Source: a virus
Direction: 5' to 3' (one strand)
Virus record (IMG/VR): IMGVR_UViG_3300050821_007009
Location: 1 to 49,313 of that record
DNA length: 49,313 nucleotides
The notes beneath the pieces are model-generated. The model was not told the origin of the DNA. It saw nothing but the letters and a program-made list of their open reading frames with translations, and did no database searches. Of this stretch, positions 6,564-34,152 are shown one piece after another; within the stretch, counting starts at the first letter, position 1, and each line of letters starts with the position of its first letter. The translations under genes and the position numbers were made by a program.

Positions 6564-8252
6564 ATGGCCGTCACTAATGATTTTGTGCCTTTTGGAACCG
6601 GCGCGGGTGCGAATGTTATCTCCCCGTCGACATGGGCTACACTGCCTGCGCGGTTTACCGGAGTGCAGGCCGGGCAAGCGTCATCTGCACAAGCGAATAC
6701 CGCCTGGCGGCAAACTAGTTCTATTACCTCCGCTATCGCGCAATTCATTTCTGATACGCTAGCTCAATCGGTAGCTGACAATGGCAACATTGCAACCCTA
6801 GAAGCGCAATTTATAGCCGCAATTCAGACCTCTGTTGGTTCTCCATCACAGGCATCGCTTTGGCATTTCGGCCACGACAACGGCCCCGTGAACGTGCTAC
6901 AAGTCGCGGCCTCGCCGGTCATCACGGCGTATCAAGACGGCATGACCCTATCGACATTTCCGCAATTTAGCAACACGGTATCGAATCCAACGCTTAGCGC
7001 CAATGGACTGGCCGCTACAGTAATCGTCCATGCTGACGGAACAGCGCTTAATCCAGGCGATATATCCAGTAACACTGCGATAGTTTTTGAGTTTGACGCG
7101 ACGGCTGCGAAGTGGCGTATTATCAGTGCTTCGGCTGTCCCGCAAGCGGCGCTTGATCATTATGGTGCCGATGTGGGGACCGCGAATGCCATGCTGGTTT
7201 CGACGGTATTCCCAGGGATTGCCGCTGTTACTACCGGCATGCAATTTGTCATCAAGAAAGGCGCTTCGCCTAACACTGGCGCCGTCACATTAAATATTGT
7301 CGGCACGAATGCAGCAGTGACATGGGGAGATGGAACGCCGTTATCCGGAATTGGCCCGGAATGGCCGGCTGGCGCGGATGGCGAGGTCGTCTATGATGGC
7401 AATTATAGGCTGCTTAGTGTAATCAACCCAGCATCATTTGTGGTTCCTGGAACTCCAGTGCCATTGCTGGCGCCGAGAACATATTACGTCGACGCCAGTG
7501 CTGGTAATGACTCGAATAATGGATTGGCTGCTGGAGCGGGCCATGCCTTTGCGACCCCCGCTAAGGCGGTCGCAACAATTCTTTCGCTGAACATGAACGG
7601 ATTCGCCGTTACGGTGAACGTGGCGAATGGCACGTATGCCCCGTTTGCGTGCTCGCCACTCAATGGATCCGGATCGGTAGCATTTATTGGCAATACTACA
7701 ACGCCGGCAAGTGTCATCATCGCTGCCACAACCGGCGAGGCCATACTGGTACAAGGAAGCGGTTATTCATTTTCTGGATTTACTGTTACTAGCGCGGCTA
7801 ACGGATCTGCGCCGCATCTTGGTTGTGGGGTGCGATGCGATGGCGGAGTTACATGCACAATATCAAATATGGCGTTTGGTGCTTGTGCATTCGCCCATAT
7901 AGAGTGTGGATTTGGCGCATCAATTCAGATGCTTGGAGTCGCGTCCGGCAACTCATCGGCGTTTATTAATATTGTTGGATCGGCGCCGTCATTCATGTAC
8001 GTGGATTCCGGAGGAACTATTTCAACCGGACAGACCGCATTGACATTGACGGGTACGCCCACGTTTACGGCATTCGCATTCGCCATAAGCAACGGTTCTA
8101 TTTCGTTGCCATTTAATTCGATTACTGGCCTGGCAACCGGTTCACGATATTCCGTGAGCTTAAATGGAGTTATTAGCACCAACGGATCCGGGGCAACCTA
8201 TTATCCAGGTAGCACTTCCGGAACGGCAACGACAGGGGGGCAATATCTCTAA
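6564..8252 (+). CDS. Tail fibre / tailspike with parallel beta-helix
   Basis: A 562-residue fibre. Residues 1-30 (TNDFVPFGTGAGANVISPSTW) are a typical baseplate-attachment start. Residues about 100-270 carry a domain common in phage fibres (ADGTALNPGDI, FEFDATAAKWRIIS, AVTLNIVGTNAAVTWGDG). From about residue 307 YYVDASAGNDSNNG opens a right-handed parallel beta-helix that continues to the C-terminus, the fold of receptor-binding tailspikes that often degrade polysaccharide. Catalytic residues cannot be assigned by eye. The coupled downstream genes are probably fibre accessories. Confidence 0.82.
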   Translation: MAVTNDFVPFGTGAGANVISPSTWATLPARFTGVQAGQASSAQANTAWRQTSSITSAIAQFISDTLAQSVADNGNIATLEAQFIAAIQTSVGSPSQASLWHFGHDNGPVNVLQVAASPVITAYQDGMTLSTFPQFSNTVSNPTLSANGLAATVIVHADGTALNPGDISSNTAIVFEFDATAAKWRIISASAVPQAALDHYGADVGTANAMLVSTVFPGIAAVTTGMQFVIKKGASPNTGAVTLNIVGTNAAVTWGDGTPLSGIGPEWPAGADGEVVYDGNYRLLSVINPASFVVPGTPVPLLAPRTYYVDASAGNDSNNGLAAGAGHAFATPAKAVATILSLNMNGFAVTVNVANGTYAPFACSPLNGSGSVAFIGNTTTPASVIIAATTGEAILVQGSGYSFSGFTVTSAANGSAPHLGCGVRCDGGVTCTISNMAFGACAFAHIECGFGASIQMLGVASGNSSAFINIVGSAPSFMYVDSGGTISTGQTALTLTGTPTFTAFAFAISNGSISLPFNSITGLATGSRYSVSLNGVISTNGSGATYYPGSTSGTATTGGQYL

Positions 8253-8437
8253 TGTTCCCATTTGACTGGTATTGGATGGTTGGCGGTGACGGATCGCAGG
8301 TCTACTCAAGCAAGAGACAGGCATATTTTCCCATTAGCGATATGGCGTATTTGCATTGGAAAACCACATTTGGAAATCCAAGCTATATTGCAACGGAAGC
8401 AGAGATGCTGGAAATATTAGCGATGTTTGGAATATGA
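8252..8437 (+). CDS. Small fibre-associated protein
   Basis: A 61-residue product beginning FPFDWYWMVGGDGSQVYSS, overlapping the fibre stop by one base (TAATG). Small Trp/Tyr-rich proteins of this form commonly follow tail fibre genes in proteobacterial phages. No fold assigned; chaperone or minor structural role is inferred from position only. Confidence 0.65.
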   Translation: MFPFDWYWMVGGDGSQVYSSKRQAYFPISDMAYLHWKTTFGNPSYIATEAEMLEILAMFGI

Positions 8438-8438
8438 T

Positions 8439-8789
8439 GTGGATCTCTCGTTCCAGAATAACCAGACATTTGCCCTTTCCTTGGATGTGAATGCGTGGAA
8501 GCCGATCTATCCTCTATCGGCGTGTGTGTTCCATATGCAGGTAAGAACGGCCCCGACGGTTGTTCCAATTATCTATGCATGGTCGTCTAATCCGACCGAC
8601 CTGTGGGGCAACGGGACTATCACCTACACTGATTCGACCGGCCTGTTATTTTTCGGGGCGCCATATAGCGATATGATTAGATTGATTCCAGGCAGCTATT
8701 TTTGGGATCTTGAATTAATTTTTGGAACAAACATCAAAGTGTTGACTGGCGGTGCATTCGTAATAACCGCCGGGATTACATTGCAATGA
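8439..8789 (+). CDS. Hypothetical virion-associated protein
   Basis: The likely start is GTG at 8439, placed directly behind the upstream stop; an in-frame TTG at 8427 would overlap that gene by 11 nt. The protein (about 116 residues) begins DLSFQNNQTFALSLDV and has alternating strands (CVFHMQVRTAP, GSYFWDLELIF, GGAFVITAGITL), a pattern seen in small beta-sandwich proteins of phage fibre clusters. Function unknown. Confidence 0.6.
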   Translation: MDLSFQNNQTFALSLDVNAWKPIYPLSACVFHMQVRTAPTVVPIIYAWSSNPTDLWGNGTITYTDSTGLLFFGAPYSDMIRLIPGSYFWDLELIFGTNIKVLTGGAFVITAGITLQ

Positions 8790-26199: not shown

Positions 26200-26853
26200 A
26201 TGGATGGCGAACTTAGCAGACGTCCAGACCCTGATCCTACGCTACTTACTACCGAACAGCTTTTGCGTTCGATAGCCTCTCTGCGAGAAGAATCCAAGCA
26301 ATGGGTTGACTCACTTCAACTTCTGCTCGAAGCTAAAATAGCAGGCAAAGATGTTTTCTTCGCGGAAAAGTTTGAGTCGATCCAGACGCAGTTCAAAGAA
26401 CGTGATATTCGAACGGATCAAACCGCAAGTCAAGTGAAGTTGGCCGTTGATGCTGCCTTGCAAGCGCAAAAGGAAGCGGCCGGCGAACAAGCTAAGTCTT
26501 TCTCTGCCGCGACGAGCAAATCTGAAACCGCGATGAATAAACAGATAGAAGGCCTTGACGGAAAAATAACCGACGTTAAGGATCGGTTGAATCGCATTGA
26601 AGCCTTGGGGGTAGGAGCATCCTCCAGTCGTTATGAGTCACAGCAAGAAACCGCATTGCGCCAACATGGAGCGCAGAACATTATTTCTATTGTAGCCGCA
26701 GTTACCAGTGTTATGGCAGTGATTATCTCGCTAAGCGTAGCCATTTATACTGCGTCGCGGCCAGCTTCCGATGTTCGTATTGTCGGAAGTGTTCCACAGC
26801 CACAGCCACAGCCACAGCCACAGCCACAGCATATGATATCGCCAAGGGTTTGA
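26200..26853 (+). CDS. Coiled-coil membrane protein with Pro-Gln repeat tail
   Basis: 217 residues: long coiled coil (about 20-150, including TDQTASQVKLAVDAALQAQK and GKITDVKDRLNRIEA), then a C-terminal membrane span (IISIVAAVTSVMAVIISLSV) and a tail with six consecutive Pro-Gln pairs encoded by a CCACAG hexamer repeat near 26794-26829. Proteins with this coiled-coil pattern are widespread, unnamed phage products. The short hexamer repeat keeps frame when it slips, so length variation would only change the tail. Confidence 0.7.
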   Translation: MDGELSRRPDPDPTLLTTEQLLRSIASLREESKQWVDSLQLLLEAKIAGKDVFFAEKFESIQTQFKERDIRTDQTASQVKLAVDAALQAQKEAAGEQAKSFSAATSKSETAMNKQIEGLDGKITDVKDRLNRIEALGVGASSSRYESQQETALRQHGAQNIISIVAAVTSVMAVIISLSVAIYTASRPASDVRIVGSVPQPQPQPQPQPQHMISPRV

Positions 26854-27800: not shown

Positions 27801-28511
27801 TCACATTCCTGAAAGAGTCGCTGGATTCTTTAGGCCATCGTCAATATTCGCCTTAATTGTTATAAATTCAAGGCAATATACCCATGGATTTGCTTTCCAT
27901 GCGTCGGGGCCGTGAATTGAGTCCCAGAGCGAGCGGAAAGAAGCGCTGCGAATCTTATCTTGATTGACATACATGCCTGGTTCCGTGTAGCAGTCGTCGC
28001 TGCCCCACATGCAAAACCAGCCATCCTCTTTTTCATAATTTCGATATGCGACGGCTTGGTCCCAAAGATCGCCATCGATTCCTTCGGCATCGCAATCTTC
28101 CTCGCTGATATCATGCAATCGCTCGACCTTCACGCCAGTCACCTCGAGCGTGATGCGCGACGCTGAGCGCGGCATATATCTAGGCGAGCACCATTTGACG
28201 GTAAACGGATCAACCACACTTGCGCGATAAGCTATCGACAAATCTGGCCGGGTAGTCCATGTCTCACGGACCCAAAGGAAATCTCCTTTAGAGATGCCAA
28301 TCTGGTCCATCGGCAGCGCGTCGGTTATTGGAATATACGGCGGCCCATCCCATGAGCAAAACCGGCGCCCTTTCCCACTTGGCTCCCAATTCCATATTTT
28401 CGACATTGAAAGCCACGGCTGCGGCTTAAGTACGCGCCGAGTCTGGGATTTTCGGCCATCGAGCAATGCTCGAACCATGGGTGCCGAAAAGATGATTGGG
28501 CGGTTGATCAA
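27801..28511 (-). CDS. ASCH-domain phage protein
   Basis: TTG start at 28511 preceded by GGAGAGAG; homology-like sequence begins immediately (NRPIIFSAPMVRALLDGRKS, TRR), so the later ATG is internal. The motifs FLWVRETW, RITLEVTGVKVERLHDISEE and the C-terminal WVYCLEF are those of the phage ASCH family, a PUA-related RNA-binding-like beta barrel. Family members may bind modified nucleosides or act in translation control; biochemical role here is unknown. Confidence 0.75.
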   Translation of the reverse strand: MINRPIIFSAPMVRALLDGRKSQTRRVLKPQPWLSMSKIWNWEPSGKGRRFCSWDGPPYIPITDALPMDQIGISKGDFLWVRETWTTRPDLSIAYRASVVDPFTVKWCSPRYMPRSASRITLEVTGVKVERLHDISEEDCDAEGIDGDLWDQAVAYRNYEKEDGWFCMWGSDDCYTEPGMYVNQDKIRSASFRSLWDSIHGPDAWKANPWVYCLEFITIKANIDDGLKNPATLSGM

Positions 28512-28548
28512 CTTGCTCTCTCTCCAATAAGTATGCGGGTTGCAAGCT

Positions 28549-28653
28549 TCATTTCCTGTTGTCCTTTATAATGTCGGATATTAGGAGGCCGGCATATAGA
28601 GAGAAGGCGCCCAATAGGAAGCCGAAGAAATAGGAGGACGAGCACGGATCCAT
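28549..28653 (-). CDS. Single-span membrane microprotein (34 aa)
   Basis: The ATG follows the preceding stop codon with no gap (TAAATG). Sequence MDPCSSSYFFGFLLGAFSL continues as one membrane span and ends IKDNRK. About 35 nt between its stop and the ASCH start could encode a 14-residue peptide but shows nothing else. Confidence 0.5.
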   Translation of the reverse strand: MDPCSSSYFFGFLLGAFSLYAGLLISDIIKDNRK

Positions 28654-29247
28654 TTACGCGTCCTCCAATATTTTCACCAACTGCTCAGCTCTCGGAATAT
28701 AAACCGGGTCTTCTTGTCCGCGCGGCCCCAGTTCGATTGCTTCGACAAGGATTTCACGCGTGATATCCCACCACGCCGACTCCGCATCCGCCGCAGCCTC
28801 CGCCGCCGCCTCCGCAGCCTCCGCCGCCGCCTCCGCTGCCGCGCTTATTGTCCGCGCCGCCGATGTCACTGCCCTCGCCGCCGTTTCGATTTCCACCATA
28901 GTTTTCGCGTTGAGCAACGCGTTCCGATGCTCGCCAACAAAAAGAGGGGCGACAAGGCGATGCGTAACTGCTCTGACTAAATACTCGGCGCGCGCTTGTT
29001 CCGAAGAGGCATCGGCGCTGCCTATCAACCTCCATGTCAACGGCCATAGTTCATCTCGTTTACTCTGCGACGGGGCGAGGTCGTTCACATAGATTGCAAA
29101 TTTACTGAGCACTGGAGATGCACATTTAGGGCAGTCCGTCACGTGATCCGAGCCAGAGAACCAATCCACCATCTGCATTAGGCAGAGGCCATCTTCTGGA
29201 GCGCCGCTGCCGCTTCCTTTTCTAAGCTTTGCCGGTTGTACGATCAT
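28654..29247 (-). CDS. Phage protein with Ala-rich repeat segment
   Basis: Start at 29247 chosen for GGAGA 6-10 nt upstream; an upstream in-frame start lacks a site. 197 residues: an N-terminal domain (GLCLMQMVDWFSGSDHVTDC then PKCASPVLSKFAIYVND) resembling a small family present in proteobacterial and actinobacterial phages, then about 30 residues of Ala with regular Glu (encoded by GCC/TCC-type repeats at about 28790-28850), and a helical C-terminus. Function unknown; the Ala/Glu segment is probably a rigid helix. Confidence 0.65.
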   Translation of the reverse strand: MIVQPAKLRKGSGSGAPEDGLCLMQMVDWFSGSDHVTDCPKCASPVLSKFAIYVNDLAPSQSKRDELWPLTWRLIGSADASSEQARAEYLVRAVTHRLVAPLFVGEHRNALLNAKTMVEIETAARAVTSAARTISAAAEAAAEAAEAAAEAAADAESAWWDITREILVEAIELGPRGQEDPVYIPRAEQLVKILEDA

Positions 29248-29267
29248 GTTTTGTCTCCAAGTTGCGT

Positions 29268-29468
29268 TTAATTGCGTACTGTGAGAGCGAGTATCGCCCG
29301 AATGGAACTGATAAATAGAGCACAACATTCTGGGCATAGTTCTTTATCGAATCTTGGTGCTGGCATCTTGTCGGGATTGTGCGGAGCACTAACTGAGAAG
29401 CTCAACACAACACGCCCAGCCTCCGCCATTTCCTTCCCGCAACGGTCACAGATATATTTAGAAGCCAT
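29268..29468 (-). CDS. Small zinc-ribbon protein
   Basis: Start at 29468 with AGGAAAAG upstream. 66 residues with ICDRCGKEM near the N-terminus and ELCPECC about 40 residues later, forming a CxxC...CxxC zinc ribbon around a beta hairpin (RVVLSFSVSAP). First gene after the 240-bp regulatory stretch. Confidence 0.7.
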   Translation of the reverse strand: MASKYICDRCGKEMAEAGRVVLSFSVSAPHNPDKMPAPRFDKELCPECCALFISSIRAILALTVRN

Positions 29469-31293: not shown

Positions 31294-31359
31294 GGCTTTC
31301 TTTGCTCCTCTTTGAAACGCGGTGCGGGCCGCTGGGTCCGCATCGCTTATTGTTAATCC

Positions 31360-32418
31360 GGCATTGCAATGCCGAGCCTGGCACTGCCCGGCTATTCCCC
31401 GCAGCATACAAGCCCTGCCAAGACTGCATTGCCACGCTGGGCGCTGCCTCGCACGGCCAGGCCACGCTCTGACAAGCTAAGCATTGCCTGCATTGCCTTG
31501 TCCGGCCTTGCTACGCACTTCCGCTACCAAACCGAGCATTGCTGGGCTCAACCCTGCCTGCATTGCTCTGCCGCGCTGTGCAACGCATTAACAATCCTGG
31601 TCATGACCCACCACGCCATGTCACGCCTTGCCTGCATTGCCTAGCTAGGCCATGCCCCGCTCAGCTGGGCCGCGCTGCACTCAGCCACGCCATACAGATA
31701 CGAGCTGTGCCTTGCCTGCATTGCCTTGCTGGGCCATGCTCCGCTGAACATTGCCCGGACCTGACGTGCTACACACCGCAAATCTTCGCCTGCATTGCTG
31801 GGCACCACACCGCTGCGCCTAGCCCCACCCGTCCGGGCATTGCCGTGCTAAGCCTTGCCTGCCTCGCTCAGCCCGGCCGAGCGACGCTACGACATACACG
31901 TCACTGCCGTTCTCGGCCGTGCCTGCATAGGCCTGACCTAAACACGACGAACAACGACATCCACCAATGCGCCAAGCCTGCATTGCCAGGCCCAGCCGTT
32001 CAGATCCGAGCGGCGCCTGGCCAGGCCTTGCCTGTTACGAGCCGCGCCAAGCCTGCATTGCCATGCTCGGCCAGGCATCGCTTCGACATGCACGTCAATG
32101 CCGAGCCTGCTAAGCCATTCCTGAACTGGCCTAACCGCTCCCCGCAATAATATTCACCAACCGGACTTGCCAAGCCTGCTGAGCCATTACACTCCAAGCC
32201 ATTATGGGCCATCCCAATCTATGCCTGCATCGCCGCGCACAACCGCGCCTCGCCATTCCAATACCCGCACGACCCTGCCCTGTATCGCCTGCATTGCCAA
32301 ACCTAGCCGTTCACGAACCAGATCGGCATGGCCACGCCAAGCCTGCATTGCCGCGCCTCGCCTAAGCCATTTAGCGCATTGCTCCGCCATGCATCTCCTG
32401 CCTCGCCTCTCCCCGCAC
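31360..32418. repeat. Degenerate pentanucleotide array, about 1.05 kb, non-coding
   Basis: The stretch between the membrane protein gene and the gene ending at 32419 is built on the plus strand from consecutive 5-bp units starting with GC; for example eleven units in phase from 31431 to 31485, ten of them GC-starting. The phase is broken periodically by a 4-bp CATT inside the core GCCTGCATTGCC. That core occurs exactly at 31486, 31630, 31714, 31976, 32051, 32287 and 32341, with a final T at 31556 and 31788, and in decayed forms (31856, 31921, 32104, 32174, 32223). The array starts within 20 nt of one stop codon and ends about 70 nt before the next start. Open frames through it are artefacts of the composition. 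Confidence 0.9.
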
Positions 32419-32925
32419 TTAAACGCTAGTGCGAGTTTCACGAGCGATCCTTGAATCAATTTTTCGGATCGCTTCATTAACATCAGAACAAATTTCTTCG
32501 AGGCTGCGATATCTACGCTTGAACGATTCGAGATCACGCTTAGCCGCTTTCATAAGAGCCGATTGTAGACTCTCGCTTTCACGAACATCTTGTAGTGAAT
32601 AATAACAAGTCTCCTTGTCCGCATGAACTGACAGAAACGCCCTAGGCGGTTCAGTATAATTATCGTCCTCGACGCGCACTAGCCGGATTAACGCGCGCGC
32701 TTGATCAAGTCGATATGCTCCTGCTGCCGCCGCATCATCCCATTCAAAATGTTTATGAAGAGGATGGCTCCGAGCCTTAGCAGAATCAACAACAGCCTTT
32801 GGTGTTAACTTGCCCCCCGACTTGTCGGCGATCTCTTGAAGGGCCTCGCCGACAATTTGCGGGTTAGTTTTTTTCGCTCCTATGACAGGAAGCGGCTCGT
32901 CTTCGTTAAAGATATATCTTACCAC
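32419..32925 (-). CDS. Conserved early phage protein of unknown function
   Basis: 168 residues. The middle section HPLHKHFEWDDAAAAGAYRL, then DQARALIRLVRV, is a signature repeated in many alphaproteobacterial phage proteins; the C-terminal half is charged and helical (SLEEICSDVNEAIRKIDSRI). It follows the putative RAMP-fold gene by 5 nt and is the last gene before the pentamer array. A link to recombination is suggested only by neighbourhood. Confidence 0.7.
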   Translation of the reverse strand: MVRYIFNEDEPLPVIGAKKTNPQIVGEALQEIADKSGGKLTPKAVVDSAKARSHPLHKHFEWDDAAAAGAYRLDQARALIRLVRVEDDNYTEPPRAFLSVHADKETCYYSLQDVRESESLQSALMKAAKRDLESFKRRYRSLEEICSDVNEAIRKIDSRIARETRTSV

Positions 32926-32930
32926 TGCAC

Positions 32931-33761
32931 TTACTCCGCTGCTTCTTTAAGATAACCGGATGGGATCGGAAGTGATCCAGTCCCGTTGGCAAATCGTTCC
33001 CAGGCTTTTTCCTCGGCCATATCTGCCATATGAAAGGCGCCAAACATACCTTTACGTTCGTTGCGCCACTCGCCAAGTCCAGATGCAAGGCCTGCCTCCG
33101 CAACTAGAAATGCAAGTGCCTCATCTGTCATTACCGCCGCATTAAAGCGTCCAGTAATCCGCATCCCCCAATACCTGAATTGCCCGCGATAGGCAAGATT
33201 TGCGGTTTTGTTTAGTCCAGCTCCGATCTTCACCATGTCTTCCCGCATCTCAGGTTCGCCACCATAGATGCGAATGAGTGGCATGTCGCAAATAGCTCCG
33301 GCAAGCGCCGGGCGCACGCGTACCATATCCGCATCGATCCATAGGGCTTGCATAACTGTGGATCTGGCGATGCCCTTGTCTTTATGAGCCGAGGAAAGAA
33401 TTGCGTTCTTGATTCCAGTTGCGGGAAACCCATAGACGCCCTCGCTCATTTCATATAGGCTCGACACAAAATCGCCTTCCGGGTCGCGCTTTTCTTTCCC
33501 TCCGCGGGTAGCCTTGACTTGCTTCTCCAGCATTTCCCGCTTGGCCTTTTCCGACCAGGCGTGAACGATCAAAGGCGTATCGCCTATGATCCACACGGTG
33601 AATTTTTTAAACGGGACTTTTCTTGATAGTGCAGAAGTCAAATTAGCCGTAGTTGTGAGATCTAGCTTAGCATCGTTTTCGTCGAAAACATAAGCTCGCT
33701 TTTGCTCTTTTGTTAAGCCTTCGGAAGTCTTTGTAACTGCCTTTCGTTTTGCAACTGGCAT
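32931..33761 (-). CDS. Conserved early protein, possible RAMP/Cas7-like fold
   Basis: 276 residues; AGGAG lies 11-15 nt before the ATG. After a Lys-rich, probably disordered start come IIGDTPLIVHAWSEKAKRE, GVYGFPATGIKNAILSSA, MPLIRIYGGEPEMREDMV, and a glycine-rich end GEWRNERKGMFGAF at about 230-243. The alternation of a PA-x-x-x-K/N-A helix after the first strand and a late G-E-x-R...G-x-x-G-x-F loop resembles RAMP/Cas7-type RNA-binding folds, but no CRISPR genes are near. In other phages such proteins lie with single-strand-binding genes, as here. Function unproven. Confidence 0.6.
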   Translation of the reverse strand: MPVAKRKAVTKTSEGLTKEQKRAYVFDENDAKLDLTTTANLTSALSRKVPFKKFTVWIIGDTPLIVHAWSEKAKREMLEKQVKATRGGKEKRDPEGDFVSSLYEMSEGVYGFPATGIKNAILSSAHKDKGIARSTVMQALWIDADMVRVRPALAGAICDMPLIRIYGGEPEMREDMVKIGAGLNKTANLAYRGQFRYWGMRITGRFNAAVMTDEALAFLVAEAGLASGLGEWRNERKGMFGAFHMADMAEEKAWERFANGTGSLPIPSGYLKEAAE

Positions 33762-33774
33762 GTGCTATTTTCTC

Positions 33775-34152
33775 CTATCGGTAAAGTGGACGACGTTCTA
33801 GTGGTTGGCGCGGCTCGCGTTTGGGCTTATCTGATTTCGGGAATCCACGTGATCTAATCCCTGGCTTTGGCCAAGGAACTCCGACATGAGTTGCTTGCCG
33901 TTGTTTGGCTTCCGCGATATATGCTACGTCTACCCATGTTTTCGCAGCATGACAGTCAAGACATAAGCAGCGGCAATTCTCTAGCGTTGCCGTTCCGCCA
34001 AGACCATCAGGATTATGATGGTCGCAATGATAGCGTCCAGGGACCAGAACCACATTGCATCGCCTTCCGGTTGGCTTGGTGCCTTCGCATCGGCCGCCGC
34101 ACTGCAAAAAGCGCGCGGCCATTGTTGACTTGCTAAAATTATGGCGAGTCAT
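33775..34152 (-). CDS. HNH endonuclease-like protein
   Basis: 125 residues. CGGRCEGTKPTGRRCNVVLV followed by GRYHCDHHNPDG, GGTATLENCRCLCLDCHAAKT gives the HNH layout: Cys pairs for structural zinc, a DHH metal/general-base element, an Asn in LENCRCL and the final His in CHAAKT. The C-terminus is a basic tail (KPKREPRQPLERRPLYR). It may nick or cleave DNA during packaging or as a free-standing homing enzyme. Confidence 0.78.
   Translation of the reverse strand: MTRHNFSKSTMAARFLQCGGRCEGTKPTGRRCNVVLVPGRYHCDHHNPDGLGGTATLENCRCLCLDCHAAKTWVDVAYIAEAKQRQATHVGVPWPKPGIRSRGFPKSDKPKREPRQPLERRPLYR

What the first reader, a model, noticed from the sequence alone, without database searches (positions are those of the whole stretch)
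31360..32418. A 1-kb array of degenerate 5-bp units within an operon
The DNA is organised as GC-starting pentamers in phase over tens of units, reset by a 4-bp CATT within a recurring core GCCTGCATTGCC (seven exact copies, two with a final T, 54-260 bp apart including decayed copies). A 5-bp period is half a helical turn and not a multiple of three, so protein coding cannot explain it. It sits between two genes of the leftward operon, so it is probably transcribed. Possible roles: phased protein-binding scaffold, intrinsic curvature, a long repetitive RNA, or a recombination/packaging element.
Basis: seen in the sequence. Interest (0 to 1): 0.88.

Follow-up and report, generated by a model that had tools for sequence, protein, structure and literature searches.

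The report
Phage VIPR guide-RNA array
This 1-kb stretch of phage DNA is almost certainly a string of about sixteen guide-RNA units read by a CRISPR-like protein encoded next to it, a recently described viral weapon (VIPR) that finds DNA targets by reading two bases and skipping one.

Summary
On the operon's sense strand (minus strand of the window), 31330-32418 is a noncoding run of GGY-NN pentamers, with G/A/T tolerated at position 1. A 4-nt step (TGCA, GGCA or AGCA, followed by GGC) cuts it into about 16 segments of 9-16 pentamers. Lag-5 autocorrelation is 0.43 against 0.28 in shuffles (z = 11).

It is not a curvature or packaging element. Directly upstream lie vap (32419-32925) and vipr (32931-33761). 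The Vipr model matches Csm3/Cas7 RAMP proteins (PDB, E 7.8e-5), and its profile matches the Vipr of phage SUSP1 (hhalign E 2e-11). Of 23 viral relatives, 21 have a 5-bp array beside the gene. Four loci fetched by the core DNA motif alone and carrying such an array also encode Vipr and Vap. Array content turns over while flanking genes stay conserved, and NN pairs carry codon-position-1/2 statistics.

This fits the VIPR system (PMC13142463, a 2026 preprint): vrRNAs of 9-16 YNNGG repeats guide a RAMP to DNA under an NN-skip-1 rule. The window is a new member with a long uninterrupted array, a loose scaffold and a Vap unrelated to SUSP1's. No natural target was found for six of its guides.

The parts
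31330..32418 (-). VIPR vrRNA array: about 206 pentamers of consensus (G>A,T)G(C>T,A)NN in about 16 segments
   Evidence: same-locus arrays in relatives
32290..32343 (-). example guide segment, 10 pentamers ending in the boundary GGCAA TGCA|GGC
31633..31716 (-). longest well-formed guide segment, 16 pentamers
31489..31632 (-). two further guide segments (31489-31558 and 31559-31632)
31717..32289 (-). guide segments 31717-31790, 31791-31859, 31860-31923, 31924-31978, 31979-32053, 32054-32107, 32108-32176, 32177-32225, 32226-32289
31319..31346 (-). 12-pair hairpin at the 3' end of the array (3' cap or transcription end)
   Evidence: fold of 31300-31360 gives -18.7 kcal/mol. It is followed by only three T on the sense strand, so termination is an inference
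32419..32925 (-). vap (vipr-accessory gene), phrog_15946; confident model, weak resemblance to winged-helix DNA-binding folds
32931..33761 (-). vipr, RAMP (Cas7/Csm3-like) protein, phrog_4652

Best explanation
The array is the guide-RNA store of a VIPR system carried by the phage. Inferred mechanism: the operon is transcribed leftward through vipr, vap and the array. The RNA is divided at the 4-nt steps into vrRNAs of about 9-16 pentamers (or is used as overlapping guides), and Vipr subunits polymerise on it, one per GGY. The thumb of each subunit hides the GGY and exposes the NN pair. The exposed pairs recognise double-stranded DNA as NNxNNxNNx, with the skipped base usually at the codon wobble position, and the complex silences genes of rival phages or prophages, with Vap assisting. 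Shown here: the array, its anatomy, its linkage to vipr and vap, the RAMP fold, homology to SUSP1 Vipr, array turnover, and codon-like NN statistics. Shown in the preprint for other members: vrRNA expression, binding to Vipr, the 1-nt skip rule, and repression. Not shown for this phage: transcription, processing, targets.
For: 5-nt period and 4-nt steps. Segment size of 9-16 pentamers equals the 9-16 YNNGG repeats reported for vrRNAs. Vipr model: top PDB matches are Csm3 and type VII Cas7 chains, E 7.8e-5, probability 1.00. Profile of this Vipr family against the SUSP1 Vipr candidate: probability 97.3%, E 2.1e-11. 21 of 23 viral relatives of Vipr (33-74% identity) carry a 5-bp array beside the gene, L129, L130 and L135 only weakly; Gordonia and Mycobacterium phages and four Hyphomicrobiales genomes do too. 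Reverse test: of 120 loci fetched by the core DNA pattern alone, L020, L076, L103 and L111 have the array and all encode Vipr and Vap. Boundary spacing is 4 modulo 5 in 122 of 166 cases. Arrays are not alignable between phages whose flanking genes are 78-90% identical. NN pairs of 209 segments fit codon positions 1-2 (z about 7 against independent shuffling; neighbouring-pair control z = -1) and segments differ in strand (z = 3).
Against: No natural target was found for window guides: exact 8-9 NN stretches of six guides in IMG/VR gave only matches whose flanks do not continue, and one guide in 394 Hyphomicrobiales genomes gave none. The scaffold is loose here (strict GGY in 44% of pentamers, against 83-94% in the strictest arrays; shuffle 20%), so part of the array could be decayed. 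Codon statistics for the window alone are weak (z = 2.2). There is no transcript evidence. The general dinucleotide model also fits NN pairs better than chance (z = 5.7). The preprint is not yet peer reviewed.
Confidence: 0.93

Rival explanations
1. The array is a decayed VIPR array: vipr and vap persist but many segments are no longer functional guides.
For: Strict GGY in only 44% of pentamers; irregular one-base insertions in several segments; close relatives L129, L130 and L152 are looser still (20-33%).
Against: Phase is held over about 200 pentamers, position 2 is G in 83%, and boundaries are near-identical in 12 of 16 cases. vipr and vap are intact and conserved across the same loose-scaffold subclade, which suggests a relaxed consensus rather than decay.
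Confidence: 0.15
2. A DNA element: half-turn-phased protein-binding sites, intrinsic curvature, or a recombination or packaging site that acts as DNA.
For: 5 bp is about half a helical turn; strong sequence periodicity.
Against: The 4-nt steps break helical phasing every 49-86 bp. In relatives the array lies on the same strand as vipr and vap and next to them, in very divergent phages. Its content turns over, and the variable letters look like copied coding sequence.
Confidence: 0.03
3. A repetitive, low-complexity expansion without function (slippage product).
For: Simple repeats can expand by slippage.
Against: Tandem Repeats Finder finds nothing here: two of five letters are hypervariable while three are constrained, which is not a slippage signature. 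Strict linkage to one gene pair across many phages.
Confidence: 0.01

Closest known systems
VIPR (Viral Interference Programmable Repeat), Escherichia phage SUSP1 type II system (PMC13142463)
   Same: RAMP-family Vipr homologous over its length (hhalign E 2.1e-11); vap gene beside it; GGY-NN pentamer RNA units next to the genes, 9-16 repeats per unit.
   Different: One uninterrupted array of about 16 segments joined by a 4-nt step, where SUSP1 has four separate vrRNAs each with a conserved 3' tail; the Vap is unrelated to SUSP1 vap1; looser scaffold with C rather than T at position 3; Vipr is longer at the N-terminus.
VIPR types with 'staggered arrays with overlapping vrRNAs' (PMC13142463, fig. 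S18, main text only)
   Same: A long array without separators, in which each unit runs into the next, fits the description.
   Different: The supplementary figure could not be read, so identity of type could not be tested.
Type III / type VII CRISPR Cas7 (Csm3) backbone subunits
   Same: Predicted fold and glycine-rich loop; by analogy, oligomerises on guide RNA with a fixed nucleotide step.
   Different: No CRISPR repeats and no cas genes found beside it, step of 5 rather than 6 nt, 9-14% sequence identity to the best PDB matches.

Membership tests
VIPR | Vipr protein of the RAMP superfamily | tested here: met
   AF2 model matches Csm3/Cas7 in PDB, E 7.8e-5; profile match to SUSP1 Vipr, E 2.1e-11
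VIPR | vrRNA region of alternating GGY/NN pentamers, 9-16 repeats per unit, NN hypervariable | tested here: met
   Segments of 9-16 pentamers; position 2 G 83%, position 3 C or T 84-86%, NN near-uniform. The scaffold is looser than GGY at position 1.
VIPR | vap gene adjacent to vipr | tested here: met
   phrog_15946 protein directly downstream here, and near vipr in 25 of 26 loci searched
VIPR | Minimal, phage- or prophage-borne locus | tested here: met
   IMG/VR virus record; relatives in phages and in bacterial genomes
VIPR | Array is transcribed and its RNA binds Vipr | not testable with these tools
   Needs sRNA-seq and pull-down
VIPR | Targets obey the NN + 1-nt skip rule | tested here: inconclusive
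   No convincing target; NN codon statistics are consistent with a wobble skip
VIPR type II (SUSP1) | vap1 homologue | tested here: not met
   hhalign probability 0.2%, E 0.31
VIPR type II (SUSP1) | Separate vrRNAs each with a conserved structured 3' tail | tested here: not met
   Segments are contiguous; one hairpin at the array end only
CRISPR-Cas | Near-identical repeats separating unique spacers, plus cas genes | tested here: not met
   No such repeats in the array; no Pfam or PADLOC hit for vipr or vap and no Rfam hit in the region

The most novel reading that the evidence does not exclude
A loose-scaffold VIPR subclade (this window, L129, L130, L152, L020) in which the GGY letters are themselves partly variable, so that the scaffold carries extra target or self/non-self information or a different skip rule. 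The only hint is that scaffold position 1 depends on the preceding N2 in this window (z = 2.9, one of 25 tests).
Probability: 0.08. Interest if true: 0.75.

Novelty: new member of a known kind. Interest (0 to 1): 0.62.

Why it matters
VIPR was reported only in April 2026 as an RNA-guided system thought to predate CRISPR. This locus independently recovers the same logic from raw sequence. It adds a long array with about sixteen segments, gives computational support for the NN/wobble code from 25 arrays, shows CRISPR-like turnover of array content between close phages, and identifies cultured Mycobacterium and Gordonia phages that carry the system and could be tested in laboratory strains.

Tried and rejected
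Target search: about 200 segments from all arrays against 1.4 Mb and then 0.56 Mb of held sequence with skips 0-3, nothing above shuffled guides; the only perfect matches were skip-3 hits of arrays to themselves. Exact 8-9 NN stretches of six window guides in IMG/VR: chance hits whose flanks fail. One window guide in 394 Hyphomicrobiales genomes, and guides of two Hyphomicrobiales prophages in their genera (2 and 30 genomes): none. Direct DNA similarity to known phages: none. Rfam: none. Curvature was not computed, because the 4-nt steps and the strand-specific linkage to vipr made it moot. Searching Vap by fold gave only insignificant winged-helix matches (E 0.1).

Full report
Observation. 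The region 31360-32418 has a strong 5-bp period (lag-5 autocorrelation 0.432 against 0.276 in dinucleotide shuffles, z = 11). The recurring core GCCTGCATTGC occurs nine times, only here. Read on the minus strand, the strand of the flanking operon, the region is a run of pentamers G-G-C-N-N. Position 1 is G 60%, A 18%, T 18%; position 2 is G 83%; position 3 is C 73%. Positions 4 and 5 are close to uniform. Every 49-86 nt a 4-letter unit (TGCA 12 times, otherwise GGCA or AGCA) precedes GGC and shifts the phase by one. This gives about 16 segments of 9-16 pentamers. A 12-pair hairpin (31319-31346) stands at the end of the array.

Neighbourhood. Upstream on the same strand are a 168-aa protein (32419-32925, phrog_15946) and a 276-aa protein (32931-33761, phrog_4652), both of unknown function in PHROGs and without Pfam hits. 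Twenty-three viral relatives of the 276-aa protein were found (33-74% identity). Twenty-one of them have a 5-bp-periodic array close to the gene, L129, L130 and L135 only weakly. Of the two without, L150 ends just after the start of the match and L141 scored just below the threshold. The 168-aa protein family is encoded near the 276-aa protein in 25 of 26 loci searched. Conversely, of 120 loci fetched only because they contain the core DNA pattern, four with such an array (L020, L076, L103, L111) encode both proteins; L114 is a fragment that begins inside its array, and L106 has a different period.

Identity of the protein. An AlphaFold2 model from 20 aligned relatives (pLDDT 75.9, pTM 0.71) matches Csm3 and type VII Cas7 chains in the PDB (best E 7.8e-5, probability 1.00; the leading rows are nearly all RAMP subunits). 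The TM-scores are modest (0.34-0.39 on the query length), as expected for a small RAMP against elaborated ones. The family has a RAMP-like glycine-rich motif, GxGEWR..E..G.FG, near its C-terminus, with its glycines, W and R invariant.

Known system. A full-text search led to a 2026 preprint, PMC13142463. It describes VIPR systems: a phage-encoded ancestral RAMP (Vipr), a vap gene, and vrRNAs of 9-16 YNNGG repeats that recognise DNA through NN pairs with one skipped base. The SUSP1 locus was fetched; the record does not name the genes, but a 195-aa gene (28474-29061) and a 146-aa gene (28031-28471), with one GGT-NN array upstream and three downstream, lie as the preprint describes for vipr and vap1. 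The profile of the window family matches that SUSP1 Vipr along its length (probability 97.3%, E 2.1e-11). The Vap does not match SUSP1 vap1, and the array is one contiguous series rather than separate tailed units, so this is not the type II arrangement. The preprint mentions types with staggered, overlapping vrRNAs, which fits, but the figure could not be read.

Tests of guide character. (a) Spacing of the GCAGG(C/T) boundary across 25 arrays is 4 modulo 5 in 122 of 166 cases. (b) Between phages whose vipr-vap genes are 78-90% identical, the arrays often cannot be aligned (L129/L130), and in L143/L145 a later stretch aligns again; L139 shares only the last segments with L138. This is what guides under turnover would show. 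(c) The NN pairs of 209 segments follow the statistics of codon positions 1-2 better than of positions 2-3 or 3-1 (log-likelihood -6101 against -6170 and -6612; z 6.7-7.1 over independent shuffling). Pairs made of N2 and the next N1 show nothing (z = -1), and segments split into sense-like and antisense-like ones (z = 3). This agrees with the reported wobble-skipping rule, although general dinucleotide bias explains part of it, and the window alone gives only z = 2.2.

Targets. None was found for window guides. Collection scans were limited to exact 8-9 NN stretches of six guides and one guide in 394 genomes, and the host is unknown, so this is weak negative evidence.

Distribution. Relatives occur in cultured Mycobacterium and Gordonia phages (32 records; arrays in Saal, UmaThurman and Ecliptus) and in four of 397 genomes of the order of Corticibacterium at strong E-values, each with an array.

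Verdict. It is a new member of a known, very recent kind, with a loose scaffold whose meaning is open.

Noticed in passing
L106:11440-12400: A G-rich array with period about 5.2 (autocorrelation peaks at 5, 10, 16, 21, 26, 31), apparently four pentamers and one hexamer; no homologue of this Vipr family in the held stretch. Possibly another VIPR type or a different system.
   Followed up: partly
L163:901-1494: A strict GGCNN array in a bacterial genome whose units are separated by a repeated GGAAGTTTTCAAGGTTTCA-like element, next to a distant Vipr relative (E 1.8e-11).
   Followed up: partly
L132:1461-1950 and 7370-8640: Two arrays in one phage, one upstream and one downstream of vipr.
   Followed up: no
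L149:6571-6820 and 7312-7620: Arrays on both sides of vap, with T about as often as C at scaffold position 3.
   Followed up: no
window 31330-32418: Scaffold position 1 depends weakly on the preceding N2 (A is rare after A; z = 2.9 in one of 25 tests).
   Followed up: partly
window 28782-28842: GCC-rich short tandem repeat within the leftward gene 28654-29337 (alanine-rich AAEAAEAAAEAA stretch).
   Followed up: no
window 26794-26830: Six perfect CCACAG repeats encoding a PQ-repeat near the C-terminus of the gene 26200-26853.
   Followed up: no
window 33775-34152: A small HNH endonuclease gene directly upstream of vipr on the same strand (phrog_333, E 4e-9).
   Followed up: no
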